A stretch of 46,573 bases of DNA, taken from the IMG/VR virus record IMGVR_UViG_3300033148_006358, positions 1-46,573 of that record; one strand, 5' to 3'. Both the position numbers and the translations under genes were made by a program. Below the pieces are notes generated by a model. That model was not told the DNA's origin. It searched no databases and worked only from the letters and a program-made list of their open reading frames with translations. Every line of letters starts with the position of its first letter. The stretch's first letter is position 1. The stretch comes from a virus. This document shows positions 1 to 46,573 of the stretch, in pieces.

Positions 1-114
1 GGGCTTGTGGTTTTTAAAGACAATTCTATTTACAAGAAAGATACTGTTTATGAAGATGATATTTTTTCCGCACAGTTTTACCCTGTGTTTGAGAATATGG
101 CGGAGATTATTCTT
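1..114. repeat. Direct terminal repeat, left copy
   Basis: Bases 1-114 are identical to bases 46460-46573. The repeat lies inside a single structural gene that reads through the join in frame, so the contig is best read as a closed circle of 46,459 bp. Whether it is a genuine short terminal redundancy or only an assembly overlap cannot be told from the sequence. Confidence 0.95.
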
Positions 115-11825: not shown

Positions 11826-11903
11826 TGGTGGTTACGGCTGGACTTGAACCAACATCTCCGAGCCATCGTTTGCTCGGTGTTTTACCAGTTAAACTACGCT
11901 GCC
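11826..11903 (-). tRNA. tRNA gene with unusual anticodon arm, isotype not assigned
   Basis: 78 bases including an encoded CCA. The D-arm (GTTT/AAAC with GG in the loop) and T-arm (GTTGG, loop TTCAAGT, CCAGC) are normal. The acceptor (GGCAGCG/CGTAACC) has two mismatches. The anticodon arm is odd: CCGAGC pairs with GCTCGG around an 8-base loop AAACGATG that has no U at the usual position 33, so no anticodon can be read with confidence. It lies four bases after the preceding tRNA-like element on the same transcript. It may be a degenerate tRNA, a frameshift-type tRNA or a decoy. Confidence 0.65.
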
Positions 11904-11907
11904 GTTT

Positions 11908-11987
11908 TGGTGGAGATTGTGGGAATCGAACCCACGTCCGCTTGGCACGCCTCACGTTTTTAACAAGCGTCTAAACCCTTAATCCCC
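11908..11987 (-). ncRNA. tRNA/tmRNA-like element with alanine-type acceptor
   Basis: 80 bases ending in CCA. The acceptor is GGGGATT/AATCTCC, seven pairs with a G3-U70 wobble and discriminator A, the alanine identity set shared by tRNA-Ala and tmRNA. The T-arm (GTGGG, TTCGATT, CCCAC) is perfect and is preceded by CGGAC, as in tmRNA 3' ends. There is no normal D-arm or anticodon arm. Instead CGCTTG/CAAGCG closes a 19-base loop where tmRNA has helix P2, and GGGTTTAGACG resembles the tmRNA D-loop region. No tag reading frame is visible. I read it as a minimal tmRNA-like or degenerate tRNA molecule. Confidence 0.55.
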
Positions 11988-11993
11988 ATTTAT

Positions 11994-12049
11994 GCTCCCC
12001 TATTCTGGATGTCCCAGACAGACCACCATACGGTGAATGTTCGGGGAGC
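11994..12049 (-). ncRNA. Folded RNA module (three-way junction) upstream of the tRNA-like genes
   Basis: On the minus strand GCTCCCC (12049-12043) pairs with GGGGAGC (12000-11994). The 42 bases between them form two hairpins, CACC-GTAT-GGTG and TCTGG-GACAT-CCAGA. The module begins about 40 bases after the predicted transcription start and ends six bases before the tRNA-like element. It contains no reading frame. It could be a processing signal, a tRNA relic or part of a larger tmRNA-like RNA. Confidence 0.45.
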
Positions 12050-12094
12050 AAGACACCACCAACCTGTTATTCAACATTAAAGTGGTTCTCTATT

Positions 12095-12170: not shown

Positions 12171-12356
12171 TCACTCCGTCCCATAAATATTAATATAAAG
12201 CCGTATCAATGATGTCAGTTTTTCTTCTGCCTCGATCATCTTTGAGAAACAGCCGTTATCGCTAATATCCACTCTCCCCGCCAAAACCCTGTTTTCTTGG
12301 ACAACTTCCTCAAGTATTTTTATTTGACCCTCTATCACTTTTTTTATGCTTTTCAT
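12171..12356 (-). CDS. Small helical early protein (61 residues)
   Basis: The ATG at 12356 follows AAAGGAGATTAAA and is preferred to the in-frame ATG at 12386. The protein is almost entirely helical (KKVIEGQIKILEEVVQENR). Its second half, with a CF/E..LTSLIRLYINIYG pattern, resembles the end of the 13099-13440 product, so these may be distant paralogues. It is the last gene of the leftward early operon. Confidence 0.7.
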   Translation of the reverse strand: MKSIKKVIEGQIKILEEVVQENRVLAGRVDISDNGCFSKMIEAEEKLTSLIRLYINIYGTE

Positions 12357-12392
12357 TTTAATCTCCTTTGGTGTTGGTTTGCTCATTGAAAA

Positions 12393-12671
12393 TTAACGGA
12401 TAAAATTGTTAATGTCATCAAAATTGGAGGTTTTTTTAAGCCCCAACATTGGCGTGTCATGTTCTACAGTTTCAAGTTCCCCTGTGAGTGGCGATCCCAC
12501 TGTTTGCGTCGGTGAATCCGCAGGTATTGGATCATCGCTTTCTGCTTCCATTGTTTCTAATTGCCGCATTTTTTGATCGTATTCCGCATCAGTAATTATA
12601 ATTTTGTTTTCGATGTAATATAAGTGATTATGATATTTTAATTCTTCTCTCAGTTCATCTATTTCAGACAT
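12393..12671 (-). CDS. Stand-alone NAD+-dependent DNA ligase domain Ia
   Basis: A 92-residue protein that matches the N-terminal domain Ia of bacterial LigA. It has the helical pair with YHNHLYY and TDAEYD (residues 13-32), then ADSPTQTVGSPL and HDTPMLGL, which in LigA lead into the adenylation domain. Y18, Y19, D28, Y31 and D32 correspond to the residues that bind NMN. The gene stops at residue 92, before the KxDG nucleotidyl-transferase motif, and nothing downstream restores it. It has its own GGAGGTGAAAA ribosome-binding site and overlaps the upstream gene by 13 bases, so it looks like a maintained gene rather than debris. It may bind NMN/NAD+ or host ligase; it cannot ligate alone. Confidence 0.85.
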   Translation of the reverse strand: MSEIDELREELKYHNHLYYIENKIIITDAEYDQKMRQLETMEAESDDPIPADSPTQTVGSPLTGELETVEHDTPMLGLKKTSNFDDINNFIR

Positions 12672-12895
12672 TTTTCACCTCCCATATCAATATACTTCTT
12701 CTTGATATTCAACGCTGACTCGTGCAATTCTTCGTCGGGCAACCTTGTGTATTCCTTGTAAAAGTGTTTGTATTGGTCAACGAAATCTTCAAAGACTCCT
12801 TTTAGGGTTTCTTCTCCCGCATAAAGGTGTAGTTCTTTGCAACCAAGCATGTATCCGTCATCTTCTTTTGTTAATTCAATCGTTATTTTTGGCAT
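12659..12895 (-). CDS. HicB-like small protein, copy 2
   Basis: 78 residues. The N-terminal half (ITIELTKEDDGYMLGCKEL, then LYAGEETLKGVFEDFVDQY) follows the beta-beta-beta-alpha pattern of HicB/UPF0150 proteins, whose typical form is DGYxxxxPELxGxxTxGxTxEEAxxNxxE. It is clearly related to the neighbouring 12876-13124 product. No HicA-type toxin is adjacent, so a toxin-antitoxin role is not supported; a regulatory or inhibitor role is possible. Confidence 0.7.
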   Translation of the reverse strand: MPKITIELTKEDDGYMLGCKELHLYAGEETLKGVFEDFVDQYKHFYKEYTRLPDEELHESALNIKKKYIDMGGEKCLK

Positions 12896-13124
12896 CTTTT
12901 ATCTCCATTTTTTTGAACCTTCTCTGGTAAACCAGCCCTTTTTTGCTCAAATCGCCTTTTGCTGCCCGTGAGAAAAAACTCTCTTGACGCTTATAGTCTT
13001 CTGACAAACTCCACAACGCGTCCTCTACCGTTTCTCCATATCCGTAAAGTTGTAATTTTCGACAACAAGTTTCATATCCATTCTTAGACCTTGTCAACTC
13101 AATTATTATTTTCAGTTTCTTCAT
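12876..13124 (-). CDS. HicB-like small protein, copy 1
   Basis: 82 residues from the ATG at 13124, which lies 12-16 bases after AGGAGGAGG. The residues KIIIELTRSKNGYETC, then LQLYGYGETVEDALWSLSEDY, align with the next gene in the operon, so the two are tandem paralogues. The C-terminal 35 residues are basic and charged. It overlaps both neighbours. Confidence 0.7.
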   Translation of the reverse strand: MKKLKIIIELTRSKNGYETCCRKLQLYGYGETVEDALWSLSEDYKRQESFFSRAAKGDLSKKGLVYQRRFKKMEIKDAKNND

Positions 13125-13440
13125 ATTGTTTTTTAACCTCCTCCTCCGTTGGGCAATGGTCAAAAGTTTTTATGTCTGAGATATTCATATTATATAATAT
13201 TTCATCGCCGAACATATTGTTATACATTTGTATGTATGATATAATCCTATCTTCTAATGATATAACCTCACAAGCAAGATCACACTTGTCTATACGCTCT
13301 GCCAACCAACTCACCCTATTCTTAATAATTCCCCTGATATTCAATGTTTGTTCCTCCTCCTCCATTCTTATTTCCAATCGCTTGCCAATCACCATTGCTA
13401 TTTCTATATATAATCTACAGTTTAGTGTTTCTTCTTCCAT
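13099..13440 (-). CDS. Helical early protein (113 residues)
   Basis: The start ATG at 13440 overlaps the upstream stop (TAATG) and follows GGGGAGGTG, so it is chosen over the longer frame. The protein is helical and acidic, with cysteines near residues 60 and 64 and an LEDRIISYIQMYNNMFGDE segment resembling the end of the 12171-12356 protein. No known domain recognised. Confidence 0.7.
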   Translation of the reverse strand: MEEETLNCRLYIEIAMVIGKRLEIRMEEEEQTLNIRGIIKNRVSWLAERIDKCDLACEVISLEDRIISYIQMYNNMFGDEILYNMNISDIKTFDHCPTEEEVKKQYEETENNN

Positions 13441-25864: not shown

Positions 25865-26136
25865 TTTTCCTCCTTACATTCTGTTATAAGGATTTTTAAA
25901 TCACTTATGCTTAAATCCCTAACGTTAACAATTTGACCGCCTGACAAATCTATGTTGCCATCGGAATCAATGGAATGGACAACAGAATCATAAAATTCAC
26001 TGCCACCGTTAAGATATATATGCTTATGCTGTGTTATCGTCTTACAAAAACCCTTGTTTTCAATAAAACCCACAACGTATTCAATCATTTTCTCTTTAAC
26101 CTTCTCTAAATCTTTATAAATTTCTTTTTTTGTCAT
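25861..26136 (-). CDS. Early protein, paralogue of the 24381-24662 product
   Basis: 91 residues, ATG at 26136 after TTAGGAGGAAATT. MTKKEIYKDLEKVKEKM, then IVNVRDLSISDLKILITE, match the 24381-24662 protein. The start lies just inside the 40-base repeated leader that carries a hairpin before the ribosome-binding site. Coupled to the clamp gene (ATGA). Confidence 0.7.
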   Translation of the reverse strand: MTKKEIYKDLEKVKEKMIEYVVGFIENKGFCKTITQHKHIYLNGGSEFYDSVVHSIDSDGNIDLSGGQIVNVRDLSISDLKILITECKEEK

Positions 26137-26175
26137 AATTTCCTCCTAATAATTCTGTCTGCCCGCACAGGCGGG
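26136..26175 (-). repeat. 40-bp repeated leader, copy 1
   Basis: Identical to 26513-26552. On the minus strand it holds a CCCGC-CTGT-GCGGG hairpin, a short A/T spacer and the ribosome-binding site AGGAGGAAATTA. Both copies lie directly before a start codon, so the hairpin may tune initiation or protect the mRNA end. Confidence 0.8.
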
Positions 26176-26221
26176 TCTTGAAAAGTTAAGGCAGACCTCG
26201 CAAGAAGCCTGTCTGTGAATT

Positions 26222-26509
26222 CTATTTTTTTGAAGCCAGTTCTTTTTTTCTGGCTTCCCAGCTATATATACTCTTTCGGTTGTCCAGTTCGAACCAGACG
26301 ACAGTGCAGTCATTTGCTCTGTCCACGTCGTGGCTGAATCTTCTCCACACCTGCCCGAAGGCAAATATGAACGGGTAATACTTTCTCATGAATGTCCCAT
26401 GACATCCGTTCCCGACCATTTCTTCTCTTGTTTCAAGGTGCTTGAAATCAGGTGCCACTTTCAATTCCTGATAATGTTTTCTCTTATCATCTTCAAAATA
26501 CTTTCTCAT
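26222..26509 (-). CDS. Hypothetical early protein (95 residues)
   Basis: ATG at 26509 after GGAGGAAATTAGAA. The product is basic with many aromatics (GTFMRKYYPFIFAFGQVWRR) and ends in a lysine-rich helix. No family recognised. It begins just after the second 40-bp leader. Confidence 0.7.
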   Translation of the reverse strand: MRKYFEDDKRKHYQELKVAPDFKHLETREEMVGNGCHGTFMRKYYPFIFAFGQVWRRFSHDVDRANDCTVVWFELDNRKSIYSWEARKKELASKK

Positions 26510-26512
26510 TTC

Positions 26513-26552
26513 TAATTTCCTCCTAATAATTCTGTCTGCCCGCACAGGCGGG
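26513..26552 (-). repeat. 40-bp repeated leader, copy 2
   Basis: Exact second copy of the hairpin plus ribosome-binding-site leader found at 26136-26175. A related GC-rich inverted repeat (CCGCCTG...CAGGCGG) occurs in the terS leader near 33299-33322. Confidence 0.8.
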
Positions 26553-26818
26553 ACTTTGAAAGTAACTTCTCATCGGCACTTCCAGCCGTTAAAAAACAAA
26601 GTAAAAATCCAATAAGTCAAGCCATTGTCAGAGAGAGAGAGAATAAGTTGAATTAAATTCCCTGAAGATACCCCACTATAGTTATTATATATATATATAT
26701 ACTATAATAAGGTGTATATACACGATCTTGTCTTATTCTTATTCTTCTCAGATCCTATATATATACCCTCTCTCTCTCTCTATATATTATAAGATTAGAT
26801 CATGTATTATTATATAAA
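26553..26818. other. AT-rich, low-complexity noncoding region; candidate replication origin
   Basis: No reading frame. It contains a GA run at 26631-26642 and a matching CT run at about 26768-26781 (able to pair across 125 bases), a TA run at about 26686-26702, the 12-bp palindrome GTGTATATACAC at 26712-26723, and several smaller inverted repeats. This is the most easily melted stretch of the early region and lies close to the clamp gene, so an origin is plausible, but no iterons or DnaA boxes are obvious. Confidence 0.4.
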
Positions 26819-40454: not shown

Positions 40455-40482
40455 AAGGGGAGTCTTTGCGGCTCCCCATTTT
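40455..40482 (+). terminator. Intrinsic terminator after the capsid gene
   Basis: GGGGAGTC-TTTGC-GGCTCCCC (one G-U pair) followed by ATTTTTT. Partial termination here would give high capsid expression relative to downstream tail genes. Confidence 0.88.
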
Positions 40483-40501
40483 TTCACAAAGGAGTGATAT
40501 A

Positions 40502-43009
40502 ATGTTTAGAAACAAAACAATACTTGCCGTTATAATGATTATGGCGTTATTGTTTATTCCTATAGCAAGTGCCGATACGACCCACTACCACAGTATCGGC
40601 TTCATAGGAGATACGGTAAAGCCTGATTCAACTACTGTAACAGCATGGTTATATGATGGCGATGGGAACTTGCTGTTTGCATCGGGAACCACGGCTCCCT
40701 CTTCTGAAGAAGGTTACGCCAAGGGTTGCACGTTTTTGGATACAGATGCAACGGGTGATAGTATATATCTGACCAACAAAGGAACCACAAGTTCTTGCAC
40801 ATTTTCAACAGGAACGGCGGCAACTTCCTTTATTGCGTTGACTGATACACCCGTGGGTATAACTACAAATACTTATTACAAAGGTGATAGTGCTGGGACT
40901 GCTCTTGACGCAGGCATTGTAATGGGAACCACAACCGCCACAAATGGTAATGTTCTCATTGCCGATGGAACTGACTGGGATACCTCAACAAAAGATTCTG
41001 CAGGCATTGTTACCAAAAGTGGCGATCAGACAGGTATTGCTGGTGCGAAGACATGGACAGGAGCGGCTACATTTAGCAGTAGTGTTGCTGTTGCAGGCGG
41101 GCAGAAATTAACACTAAGAGATGCAACAGAATATATTTATTCTTCTGCAAATGGTCAAACTGATATTGCCGCAACCGATAAGGTTCAGATTGTAACTTCC
41201 ACTGTTGATATTAACGGTGCTGTTACAATGTCTGGTAATATGCTTGCTGAATCAACTGCTGAGGTTCAGTTCTATGATAGTGATATGGCTATCAGAGCGA
41301 TGAGCGACGGCACGCTTGGCGTTAAGGCTGATACAGAGGTTCAAATAGATACAACCACATTAGACATTAATGCTAATGTTGATATATCTGGAACATTGGG
41401 CGTTACAGGTGCTTTAACAGCCTCATCCACGACAGCATTAAATGATACTGTTACAGTTGGGACTGACAAGAAATTGCAGTTCAGAGATACTGGTTTGTTT
41501 GTTCGGTCTGGAACTGATGGCAAATTGACTTACTCTTCAGATGGTGCTGGTGATGACGACCATTCGTTTATTGGAACTGTAACTTTCAGCGATGCTGCCT
41601 TGTTTAGAGAAGACGTAAAATTGCAGTTCAGAGATAGCGGTGTATATGCACAGTCTGGAACTGATGGCAAATTTACATTATCTTCAGATGGCACAGGTGC
41701 GGACGACATCACACTTGATGGAACTGTTACCTTTGGTGATGACACAATCTTGGGAACAGACAAGAAAATACAGTTTAGAGATACTGGTATCTATGCACAA
41801 TCTGGTGCTGACGGCAAGTTGACCATTGCGGCAGATGGCACAGGCTCTGACGACATTACAATATCTGGCACATTGGCATTAAGTGATGATGTTCTTGTCG
41901 ATACTGATAAATCTATTCAATTTAGAGATATTGGTATTTATATGAAGTCTGGATCAGATGGTAAATTGACTATATCATCTGATGGTGTTGGAGCCGACGA
42001 TATTACAATGGACGGAACTGTAACATTCAGTGATGATGCTATCTTTAGCACTGACAAAAAAATACAGTTTAGAGATACTGGAAATTATATCAAATCAGGA
42101 TCTGACGGAGAATTTAACTTCTACTCAGATGGAACTGGTGCAGACGCTTTTAATGTTGTATCCGACGGTGGATTTGTTCTTGATGCCGTAGATGCAGTTG
42201 ATGTTAATAGTTCAACAAGCACAATTAACATTGCTAATGATGATATTGATCAGGCTGTAAATGTTGCGACAGACGGAGAGAGAACCGTAACCATCGGTTC
42301 CGTTAATGGTGCTGCTGGTTTAGTTCTTCAGGCTGGAACAGGCAATTTCAGTATGGCTGGTGTTGCTGCTTCTACGTTTACATTTGGCAAGGCAGATCAG
42401 ACTGGCACAATGTCTTTTGCTGCTTCTACAGGGGCATTAACCTGCAATATCGCAACAGGTGCAACTGGCAATAAGACCGTTCATATTGCCGATCACGACA
42501 CACCCGCAAGCACAATTACACAGGGTGGTGCTGCATCTACAGTAACGCTTGATGGTGCAACAATTACAATTGGTGATAGTGATACCGTAAGAACAACTGG
42601 TATCGCAACTGGCAATGCCGTGCAGACAGTTAATGTTATGACACATGACACCCCTGTAAGCACATATAGCCTCGGCGGAACAAACTCAAAAGTAAACATT
42701 AAAGCCAATGCTGGCATTACAATGGCGGCAGTTAACTACGCTGCAGATGCTGGCGGCGATGATGCTTATGTAACAACGCTTTCACCCGCCCCAACGGCTT
42801 ATACAACAGGACAAATGTTTCTCCTTAAAGTGGCAACCGCCAATACTGATGGTTGTTCGCTTGACGTAAACGGACTTGGAGCATTGGCAATTAAAACTGC
42901 AACAGGCACAGATCCAGCAACCAACGATATTGTTGCAACAAGCATTGCGATAATTGTCTATGATGGCACAGATTTTCTGCTTGTTAATCCCGCGACTACA
43001 ACCGACTAA
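40502..43009 (+). CDS. Repeat fibre protein with a Sec signal peptide
   Basis: 835 residues from the ATG at 40502 (after AAAGGAGTGATATA). Residues 2-6 are charged (FRNK), followed by a hydrophobic stretch ending ALLFIPIASA before DTTHYH, a clean signal-peptidase I site. Residues about 200-560 hold 49-residue repeats with the core KxQFRDTGxYxxSGxDGK; five are exactly 147 bp apart (41477, 41624, 41771, 41918, 42065). The C-terminal 90 residues (FLLKVATANTDGCSLDVNGL, then IAIIVYDGTDFLLVNP) look like a phage fibre tip domain. A secreted virion fibre is unusual; it might decorate the surface of the infected cell or the signal may be bypassed. Confidence 0.8.
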   Translation: MFRNKTILAVIMIMALLFIPIASADTTHYHSIGFIGDTVKPDSTTVTAWLYDGDGNLLFASGTTAPSSEEGYAKGCTFLDTDATGDSIYLTNKGTTSSCTFSTGTAATSFIALTDTPVGITTNTYYKGDSAGTALDAGIVMGTTTATNGNVLIADGTDWDTSTKDSAGIVTKSGDQTGIAGAKTWTGAATFSSSVAVAGGQKLTLRDATEYIYSSANGQTDIAATDKVQIVTSTVDINGAVTMSGNMLAESTAEVQFYDSDMAIRAMSDGTLGVKADTEVQIDTTTLDINANVDISGTLGVTGALTASSTTALNDTVTVGTDKKLQFRDTGLFVRSGTDGKLTYSSDGAGDDDHSFIGTVTFSDAALFREDVKLQFRDSGVYAQSGTDGKFTLSSDGTGADDITLDGTVTFGDDTILGTDKKIQFRDTGIYAQSGADGKLTIAADGTGSDDITISGTLALSDDVLVDTDKSIQFRDIGIYMKSGSDGKLTISSDGVGADDITMDGTVTFSDDAIFSTDKKIQFRDTGNYIKSGSDGEFNFYSDGTGADAFNVVSDGGFVLDAVDAVDVNSSTSTINIANDDIDQAVNVATDGERTVTIGSVNGAAGLVLQAGTGNFSMAGVAASTFTFGKADQTGTMSFAASTGALTCNIATGATGNKTVHIADHDTPASTITQGGAASTVTLDGATITIGDSDTVRTTGIATGNAVQTVNVMTHDTPVSTYSLGGTNSKVNIKANAGITMAAVNYAADAGGDDAYVTTLSPAPTAYTTGQMFLLKVATANTDGCSLDVNGLGALAIKTATGTDPATNDIVATSIAIIVYDGTDFLLVNPATTTD
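41477..42211 (+). repeat. 147-bp tandem repeats in the fibre gene
   Basis: Five units in exact register start at 41477, 41624, 41771, 41918 and 42065, each encoding 49 residues that begin with (Q)FRD. They are diverged from one another but keep length perfectly, pointing to a repeated structural unit (for example a beta-helix rung set). Confidence 0.82.
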
Positions 43010-46026: not shown

Positions 46027-46573
46027 GTTGGGATATATCTTTGTCGTAACGGGCGATAGTAAGATTTACCAAACCAACGAGGTTGCTGCCTCATGGACAC
46101 AGATTACATGGGTTGGCGGCGGAAACGCGCCGACATTCGGGAATGACGGTTATGCGTCAACTTCGTTTGGGATTGTCCATGTTTTGTTTACGTCAACTTT
46201 AAACACAACGCATACCTATCATATTAATCTTTCAAATCATACTTTCGCCGAAGCGGGAGATACCACATATAATACAGGCATGTGTCTTGCGTCTAACGAG
46301 CAGAGAATCATGGTTGGCGGGCATGCTGATGCAATAACTGGTGGTTATAACCAAATACGTTATTCTGATGCAGGCACGTATGCAACAGGCTATGGTGCTA
46401 ATTATGTTAATGTGGGCGATTCACGAGAAAGGGTGCGGTTTATAATTGGTATTAGTGGCGGGCTTGTGGTTTTTAAAGACAATTCTATTTACAAGAAAGA
46501 TACTGTTTATGAAGATGATATTTTTTCCGCACAGTTTTACCCTGTGTTTGAGAATATGGCGGAGATTATTCTT
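45953..46573 (+). CDS. P22 gp10-like tail hub, middle part (continues at position 1)
   Basis: This frame is open from about 45953 to the window end and joins in frame to 1-789. It encodes repeated blade-like segments (GYIFVVTGDSKIYQTNEV, SWTQITWVGG, RFIIGISGGLVVFKDNS) of a beta-propeller hub. It lacks its own ribosome-binding site and, apart from a TTG, any start codon, so it must be expressed as a continuation of the 45802 ORF by a sequence error or a +1 frameshift. Confidence 0.78.
   Translation, partial: MGYPVFHANFGPAVGTGQIKGVFSELGYIFVVTGDSKIYQTNEVAASWTQITWVGGGNAPTFGNDGYASTSFGIVHVLFTSTLNTTHTYHINLSNHTFAEAGDTTYNTGMCLASNEQRIMVGGHADAITGGYNQIRYSDAGTYATGYGANYVNVGDSRERVRFIIGISGGLVVFKDNSIYKKDTVYEDDIFSAQFYPVFENMAEIIL
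46460..46573. repeat. Direct terminal repeat, right copy
   Basis: Exact copy of bases 1-114. See the left copy for interpretation. Confidence 0.95.

What the first reader, a model, noticed from the sequence alone, without database searches (positions are those of the whole stretch)
12393..12671. Stand-alone NAD+-ligase Ia domain
The protein is a near-perfect LigA domain Ia, with the NMN-contact residues (Y18, Y19, D28, Y31, D32) kept, but it ends before the adenylation domain. It has a good ribosome-binding site and normal operon overlaps, so it seems to be selected. Domain Ia alone can bind NMN/NAD+ and could modulate host ligase, buffer or sense NAD+, or counter NAD+-depleting defence systems.
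Basis: partly seen in the sequence, partly recalled or inferred. Interest (0 to 1): 0.72.

Follow-up and report, generated by a model that had tools for sequence, protein, structure and literature searches.

The report
Phage solo NAD-ligase Ia domain
This complete 46.5-kb phage genome carries an intact small gene for only the NAD-handling first domain of a bacterial DNA ligase and no other ligase part. Stand-alone domains of this kind are already known in phages, but this copy was apparently cut from an ordinary LigA independently of the known family.

Summary
ORF 12393-12671 (minus strand, 92 aa) is LigA domain Ia plus about 29 residues of the adenylation domain, stopping before KxDG. All five NMN-site residues are kept, as are 18 of 19 strongly conserved LigA columns. 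The one lost (S77 to G) is constant in full-length LigAs and lies in the adenylation part. The genome is complete (114-bp terminal repeat), and no other NAD-ligase piece was found in six frames, nor an ATP-ligase domain. The downstream gene has its own Shine-Dalgarno, with no adenylation-domain debris between, so the cut is clean.

Solo Nlig-Ia proteins are prior art: Iyer et al. 2022 (PMC9503650) reported 81 phages and proposed NAD+ sensing or shielding. I found about 230 phage records of that family (phrog_6466/PF22745), many annotated 'DNA ligase'. This protein is not in that clade: it scores 105 bits to a LigA-Ia profile against 27 to a solo-family profile, and a 100/99-supported branch puts it with LigA. 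It is an apparently independent, LigA-derived solo Ia. No sister gene was found, so selection after truncation cannot be measured. Best reading: a small protein using the NMN site to sense or bind NAD+/NMN; rivals are a host-LigA modulator or a relic.

The parts
12393..12671 (-). Stand-alone LigA-type domain Ia protein, 92 aa; helices at residues 3-19 and 28-44; NMN-site residues Y18, Y19, D28, Y31, D32
12393..12485 (-). C-terminal tail (about residues 63-92) corresponding to the first ~29 residues of the LigA adenylation domain, ending before KxDG; the LigA-constant Ser is Gly (residue 77)
   Evidence: (PF01653 begins at residue 68 of a full LigA)
12676..12683 (-). Shine-Dalgarno GGGAGGTG of the Ia gene
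   Evidence: sequence
12659..12895 (-). Upstream gene, 78 aa, overlapping the Ia start by 13 nt; weak PHD_like antitoxin-type match (E 5e-4, below cut-off)
12171..12356 (-). Downstream gene, 61 aa from the ATG behind AAAGGAG (71 aa from the first ATG at 12386); unrelated to ligase
1..114 (.). Direct terminal repeat, identical to 46460-46573: the record is a complete genome
46460..46573 (.). Second copy of the 114-bp terminal repeat

Best explanation
Shown: an intact gene for a solo LigA-type domain Ia, with every NMN-site residue kept, in a complete phage genome with no detectable ligase. By profile scores and tree it belongs with full-length LigA and not with the known solo Nlig-Ia phage family. 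Inferred: the rest of the ligase was lost by one clean deletion. Inferred, less sure: the product is kept as a small ligand-binding protein that uses the NMN pocket to sense or hold NAD+/NMN during infection, for example where host NADase effectors act, as proposed for the other solo Nlig-Ia proteins. The confidence given covers the mechanism; the identity and LigA descent I hold at about 0.95.
For: Identity: pLDDT 91-97 over the Ia helices; all top 27 solved-structure matches are NAD-dependent ligases. NMN residues intact. LigA descent: 104.9 bits to LigA-Ia against 27.2 to the solo-family profile, and a 100/99 branch separating the 12 solo-family proteins from LigA plus the window. Complete genome. 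No other ligase part. Conserved-column retention 18/19 against 25/72 elsewhere, Fisher p 2e-6; the one loss is the Ser in the adenylation part, kept in the LigAs recovered by a search not keyed on it. End branch 1.42 against a median of 0.63 while the ORF and Ia residues stay intact; in a neutral simulation 0.5 changes per site kept all 12 conserved Ia residues in 0.4% of runs and never with an open frame. Precedent: PMC9503650.
Against: No sister sequence, so selection after truncation is not measured; some full-length LigAs have equally long branches. The adenylation-domain tail is about as similar to LigA as the Ia part, which fits a fairly recent truncation. No NAD-linked neighbour: no NAPRTase/NadV in the genome and no defence or NAD family among the adjacent genes scanned. 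NAD+ binding in LigA is shared with the missing adenylation domain, so affinity of Ia alone may be low.
Confidence: 0.4

Rival explanations
1. Trans-acting modulator of host LigA: the short protein competes with, or substitutes for, the mobile Ia domain of the host ligase, damping or steering host ligase during phage replication.
For: It is LigA-type rather than solo-family type and keeps the start of the adenylation domain with LigA-like residues, which a pure ligand binder would not need. The gene lies at the end of the leftward gene block that carries the replication and recombination genes. The phage encodes no detectable ligase, so it depends on the host's.
Against: No interaction data, and complexes could not be modelled here. 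The constant Ser of the adenylation part is lost. The host and its LigA are unknown.
Confidence: 0.22
2. Remnant: a phage-acquired LigA that lost most of its sequence in a deletion; the stub is translated but has no function.
For: LigA-type sequence and a tail about as LigA-like as the Ia part. No other LigA-type solo Ia was found: every LigA-like hit checked was full length, a longer ligase fragment or frame, or cut by a contig end. Long end branch.
Against: Open frame, good Shine-Dalgarno, tight gene packing, no debris downstream, 12 of 12 conserved Ia columns kept. Compact phage genomes lose dead genes quickly (own knowledge).
Confidence: 0.3
3. One subunit of a split ligase, with the adenylation and DNA-binding parts on another gene, as in T5-type phages.
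For: Two-part phage NAD-ligases appear to exist: PHROGs phrog_3359 and phrog_3498 cover the N-terminal and C-terminal parts of LigA separately.
Against: The genome is complete and no adenylation, OB, HhH or BRCT piece is found by a maximum-sensitivity profile search or by PF01653/PF01068. The known split falls elsewhere: phrog_3359 holds Ia together with the adenylation domain.
Confidence: 0.03

Closest known systems
Solo Nlig-Ia phage proteins (PF22745, phrog_6466), Iyer et al. 2022, PMC9503650
   Same: Single-domain protein of about 90-130 aa in a phage; NMN-site residues largely conserved; usually no ligase elsewhere in the genome; reported as known only from viruses
   Different: Known members share a F-x-G-x-[TS]-G-type C-terminal motif and form a separate clade; the window protein lacks that motif, keeps the LigA sequence DSPTQTVG...H..PML.L, and scores just under the PF22745 cut-off (26.6 against 27 bits)
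NAD+-dependent DNA ligase LigA, domain Ia (phrog_3869; e.g. E. coli LigA, PDB 5tt5)
   Same: Sequence, predicted fold and NMN-site residues of domain Ia
   Different: No KxDG adenylation domain, OB fold, zinc finger, HhH or BRCT: it cannot be a ligase
T5-type two-gene NAD ligases (phrog_3359 + phrog_3498)
   Same: Ligase divided over separate genes
   Different: Here no second part exists in a complete genome

Membership tests
LigA (NAD+-dependent DNA ligase) | Adenylation domain with KxDG lysine | tested here: not met
   no match beyond Ia and the first ~29 residues
LigA (NAD+-dependent DNA ligase) | Domain Ia with NMN-site residues | tested here: met
LigA (NAD+-dependent DNA ligase) | OB, zinc finger, HhH and BRCT domains | tested here: not met
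Solo Nlig-Ia (Iyer et al. 2022), by architecture | Stand-alone Ia domain encoded by a virus | tested here: met
Solo Nlig-Ia (Iyer et al. 2022), by architecture | Ligand-binding residues conserved | tested here: met
Solo Nlig-Ia (Iyer et al. 2022), by architecture | No ligase catalytic module elsewhere in the genome | tested here: met
Solo Nlig-Ia, by descent (phrog_6466/PF22745 clade) | Groups with the family in sequence scores and tree | tested here: not met
   26.6 bits against the PF22745 cut-off of 27; 27.7 bits phrog_6466 against 70.1 phrog_3869; 100/99 branch
Solo Nlig-Ia, by descent (phrog_6466/PF22745 clade) | F-x-G-x-[TS]-G-type C-terminal motif seen in nearly all members translated here | tested here: not met
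NAD+ sensor or shield (function) | Binds NAD+ or NMN | not testable with these tools
   needs a binding assay

The most novel reading that the evidence does not exclude
A phage cut domain Ia out of a LigA to make a trans-acting factor that docks on the host ligase and controls its NAD+ step: a new way for a ligase-less phage to command the host ligase, arising independently of the known solo Nlig-Ia family.
Probability: 0.15. Interest if true: 0.65.

Novelty: new variant of a known kind. Interest (0 to 1): 0.36.

Why it matters
Solo Nlig-Ia proteins are widespread in phages, many are annotated 'DNA ligase', and their role is untested as far as the papers searched show. A second solo Ia that clearly comes from LigA suggests that the domain can be useful alone, and questions the published idea that the separation could be a relic of ancient replicons. 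It is a small, assayable protein that could make the NAD+ sensing or shielding hypothesis directly testable.

Tried and rejected
Close relatives of the protein in viral contigs: none. Relatives of the virus by the phosphoesterase gave only distant matches; by the RuvC-like, DnaC-like and RecE-like proteins none. Genome contigs gave only two LigAs at 39-41%, one full length and one running off its contig end. An alignment keyed on PMLSL found only LigA-type genes, nearly all full length, with L025 ending at 191 aa, past its K-x-D-G-like motif; a second alignment keyed on the N-terminal half gave the same, after a first attempt had no usable stretch. The apparent continuation of homology past the stop against L022 is a weak chance extension into the next gene. 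NAD-salvage in the genome: NAPRTase absent. The NadV/Prs neighbourhood of the solo protein in Rhodococcus phage Weasels2 was not seen in the other solo and fusion loci inspected, so it is not used as functional evidence.

Full report
The thing itself. The ORF at 12393-12671 (minus strand) codes for 92 aa and has a strong Shine-Dalgarno GGGAGGTG a few bases before its ATG. It overlaps the gene upstream by 13 nt. It matches the full-length NAD-dependent ligase family phrog_3869 at E 2.8e-19, only at the start of the profile (8-96 of 656). Pfam Nlig-Ia matches at 26.6 bits, just under its cut-off of 27. Solved LigA structures match at E down to 1e-12. AlphaFold2 gives the two Ia helices (3-19, 28-44) at pLDDT 91-97 and a less certain tail (71-77 over residues 61-92). 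Foldseek's top 27 PDB matches are all NAD-dependent ligases.

Residues. Against 103 LigA Ia domains, the protein keeps 18 of 19 columns that are at least 80% conserved, but only 25 of 72 others match the consensus (Fisher p 2e-6). Y18, Y19, D28, Y31 and D32 are all present; I map them to E. coli LigA Y22, H23, D32, Y35, D36, residues required for reaction with NAD+ (own knowledge of Sriskanda and Shuman 2002, cited in PMC9503650). The single lost column is the Ser of PMLSL (Gly here). Because the first search pattern demanded that Ser, I checked LigAs found with a pattern in the N-terminal half instead: the Ser is kept in all of the printed ones whose stretch covers it. It lies in the adenylation part, which Pfam begins at residue 68 of a full LigA.

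Nothing else of a ligase. The record carries an identical 114-bp repeat at its two ends, so it is a complete genome. A profile of 14 full-length LigAs, run at maximum sensitivity on all six frames, finds only this ORF; the next hits have E of 0.4 or worse. PF01653 (adenylation) and PF01068 (ATP ligase) find nothing. The next gene downstream has its own AAAGGAG and probably starts at 12356, 36 nt past the stop. The cut is therefore clean, not a fresh frameshift with debris.

Where it comes from. Stand-alone Ia-like proteins are common in phages. A search with Rhodococcus phage Weasels2 gp242 found 227 phage records at E of 0.01 and 238 at 0.05, the looser set including some full-length ligases, in Escherichia, Arthrobacter, Enterococcus, Erwinia, Rhodococcus and other phages, many named 'DNA ligase'. 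The ones I scanned are phrog_6466/PF22745. The window protein is not one of them. A LigA-Ia profile scores it 104.9 bits (LigA median 117.6, solo proteins median 22.4), and a profile of the solo family scores it 27.2 (LigA median 18.5, solo median 125.4). A maximum-likelihood tree separates the 12 solo-family rows from the 68 LigA rows plus the window with 100/99 support. That tree has few columns, so the window's place within LigA is unresolved. I found no other LigA-type solo Ia: the LigA-like hits in viral contigs and genome contigs are full length, longer ligase fragments or frames, or cut by contig ends. Only the best-ranked candidates are returned by these scans, so rarity is a lower-confidence statement.

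Prior art. Iyer, Burroughs, Anantharaman and Aravind (authors from own knowledge; Viruses 2022, PMC9503650) reported Nlig-Ia as a solo protein in 81 phages, with ligand residues conserved and, with one exception, no ligase in those genomes. They proposed that it senses NAD+ or shields it from host NADase effectors, and suggested the separation could be a remnant of ancient replicons. What is added here is a case where the solo domain plainly derives from LigA.

How it may work. The first step, an NMN-type pocket on a free-standing domain, is supported by sequence and predicted fold. That it binds NMN or NAD+ by itself is inferred; in LigA the dinucleotide is held by Ia and the adenylation domain together (own knowledge). 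That this serves sensing or shielding is a further inference borrowed from the published proposal. The retained start of the adenylation domain and the LigA-type sequence leave room for a trans-acting effect on host LigA. A relic remains possible: the tail looks about as LigA-like as the Ia part, and with one sequence selection after truncation cannot be measured. The end branch (1.42 against a median of 0.63) combined with intact residues argues mildly against neutral decay: in simulation 0.5 neutral changes per site kept all 12 conserved Ia residues in 0.4% of runs and never with an open frame. Some full-length LigAs have equally long branches, so this is weak.

Context. The phage has a DnaC-like loader, RecE and RecT, SSB, a beta-clamp-like protein, a RuvC-like resolvase, GroES and an SU10-type adaptor. 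No NAPRTase is present, and none of the neighbours scanned matched a defence or NAD family convincingly. I could find no near relative of the virus; the tools warn that near-identical records may be left out.

Verdict. A real, intact, unusual gene; a new variant of a known kind; function unproven.

Noticed in passing
window 11826-12050, minus strand: Cluster of RNA genes just beyond the end of the leftward gene block: a tRNA with a predicted four-base anticodon (acga), an 80-nt match to both ends of the tmRNA model (58.9 bits) and a DUF3800-IX RNA match (39.9 bits).
   Followed up: no
window 41477-42146: Four tandem copies with a 147-nt period, the others 66-72% like the reference copy, inside a large late-region ORF (40466-43009).
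   Followed up: no
window 26102-26186 and 26479-26563: Two 85-nt repeats, 79% alike, both carrying CCCGCACAGGCGGG.
   Followed up: no
window 12659-12895 and 12876-13163: Two neighbouring small proteins that look like paralogues of each other (ITIELT.. / IIIELT.. starts), with a weak PHD_like antitoxin match for the first.
   Followed up: no
L010:982-2782 (Rhodococcus phage Weasels2): A solo Nlig-Ia gene directly behind a nicotinamide phosphoribosyltransferase gene, with a PRPP-synthase-type gene upstream, resembling an NAD+ reconstitution operon.
   Followed up: partly
L181:3950-5575 (Rhodococcus phage ReqiPoco6): A solo-type Nlig-Ia domain fused to a phage DNA helicase (phrog_62) in one 541-aa protein.
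   Followed up: no
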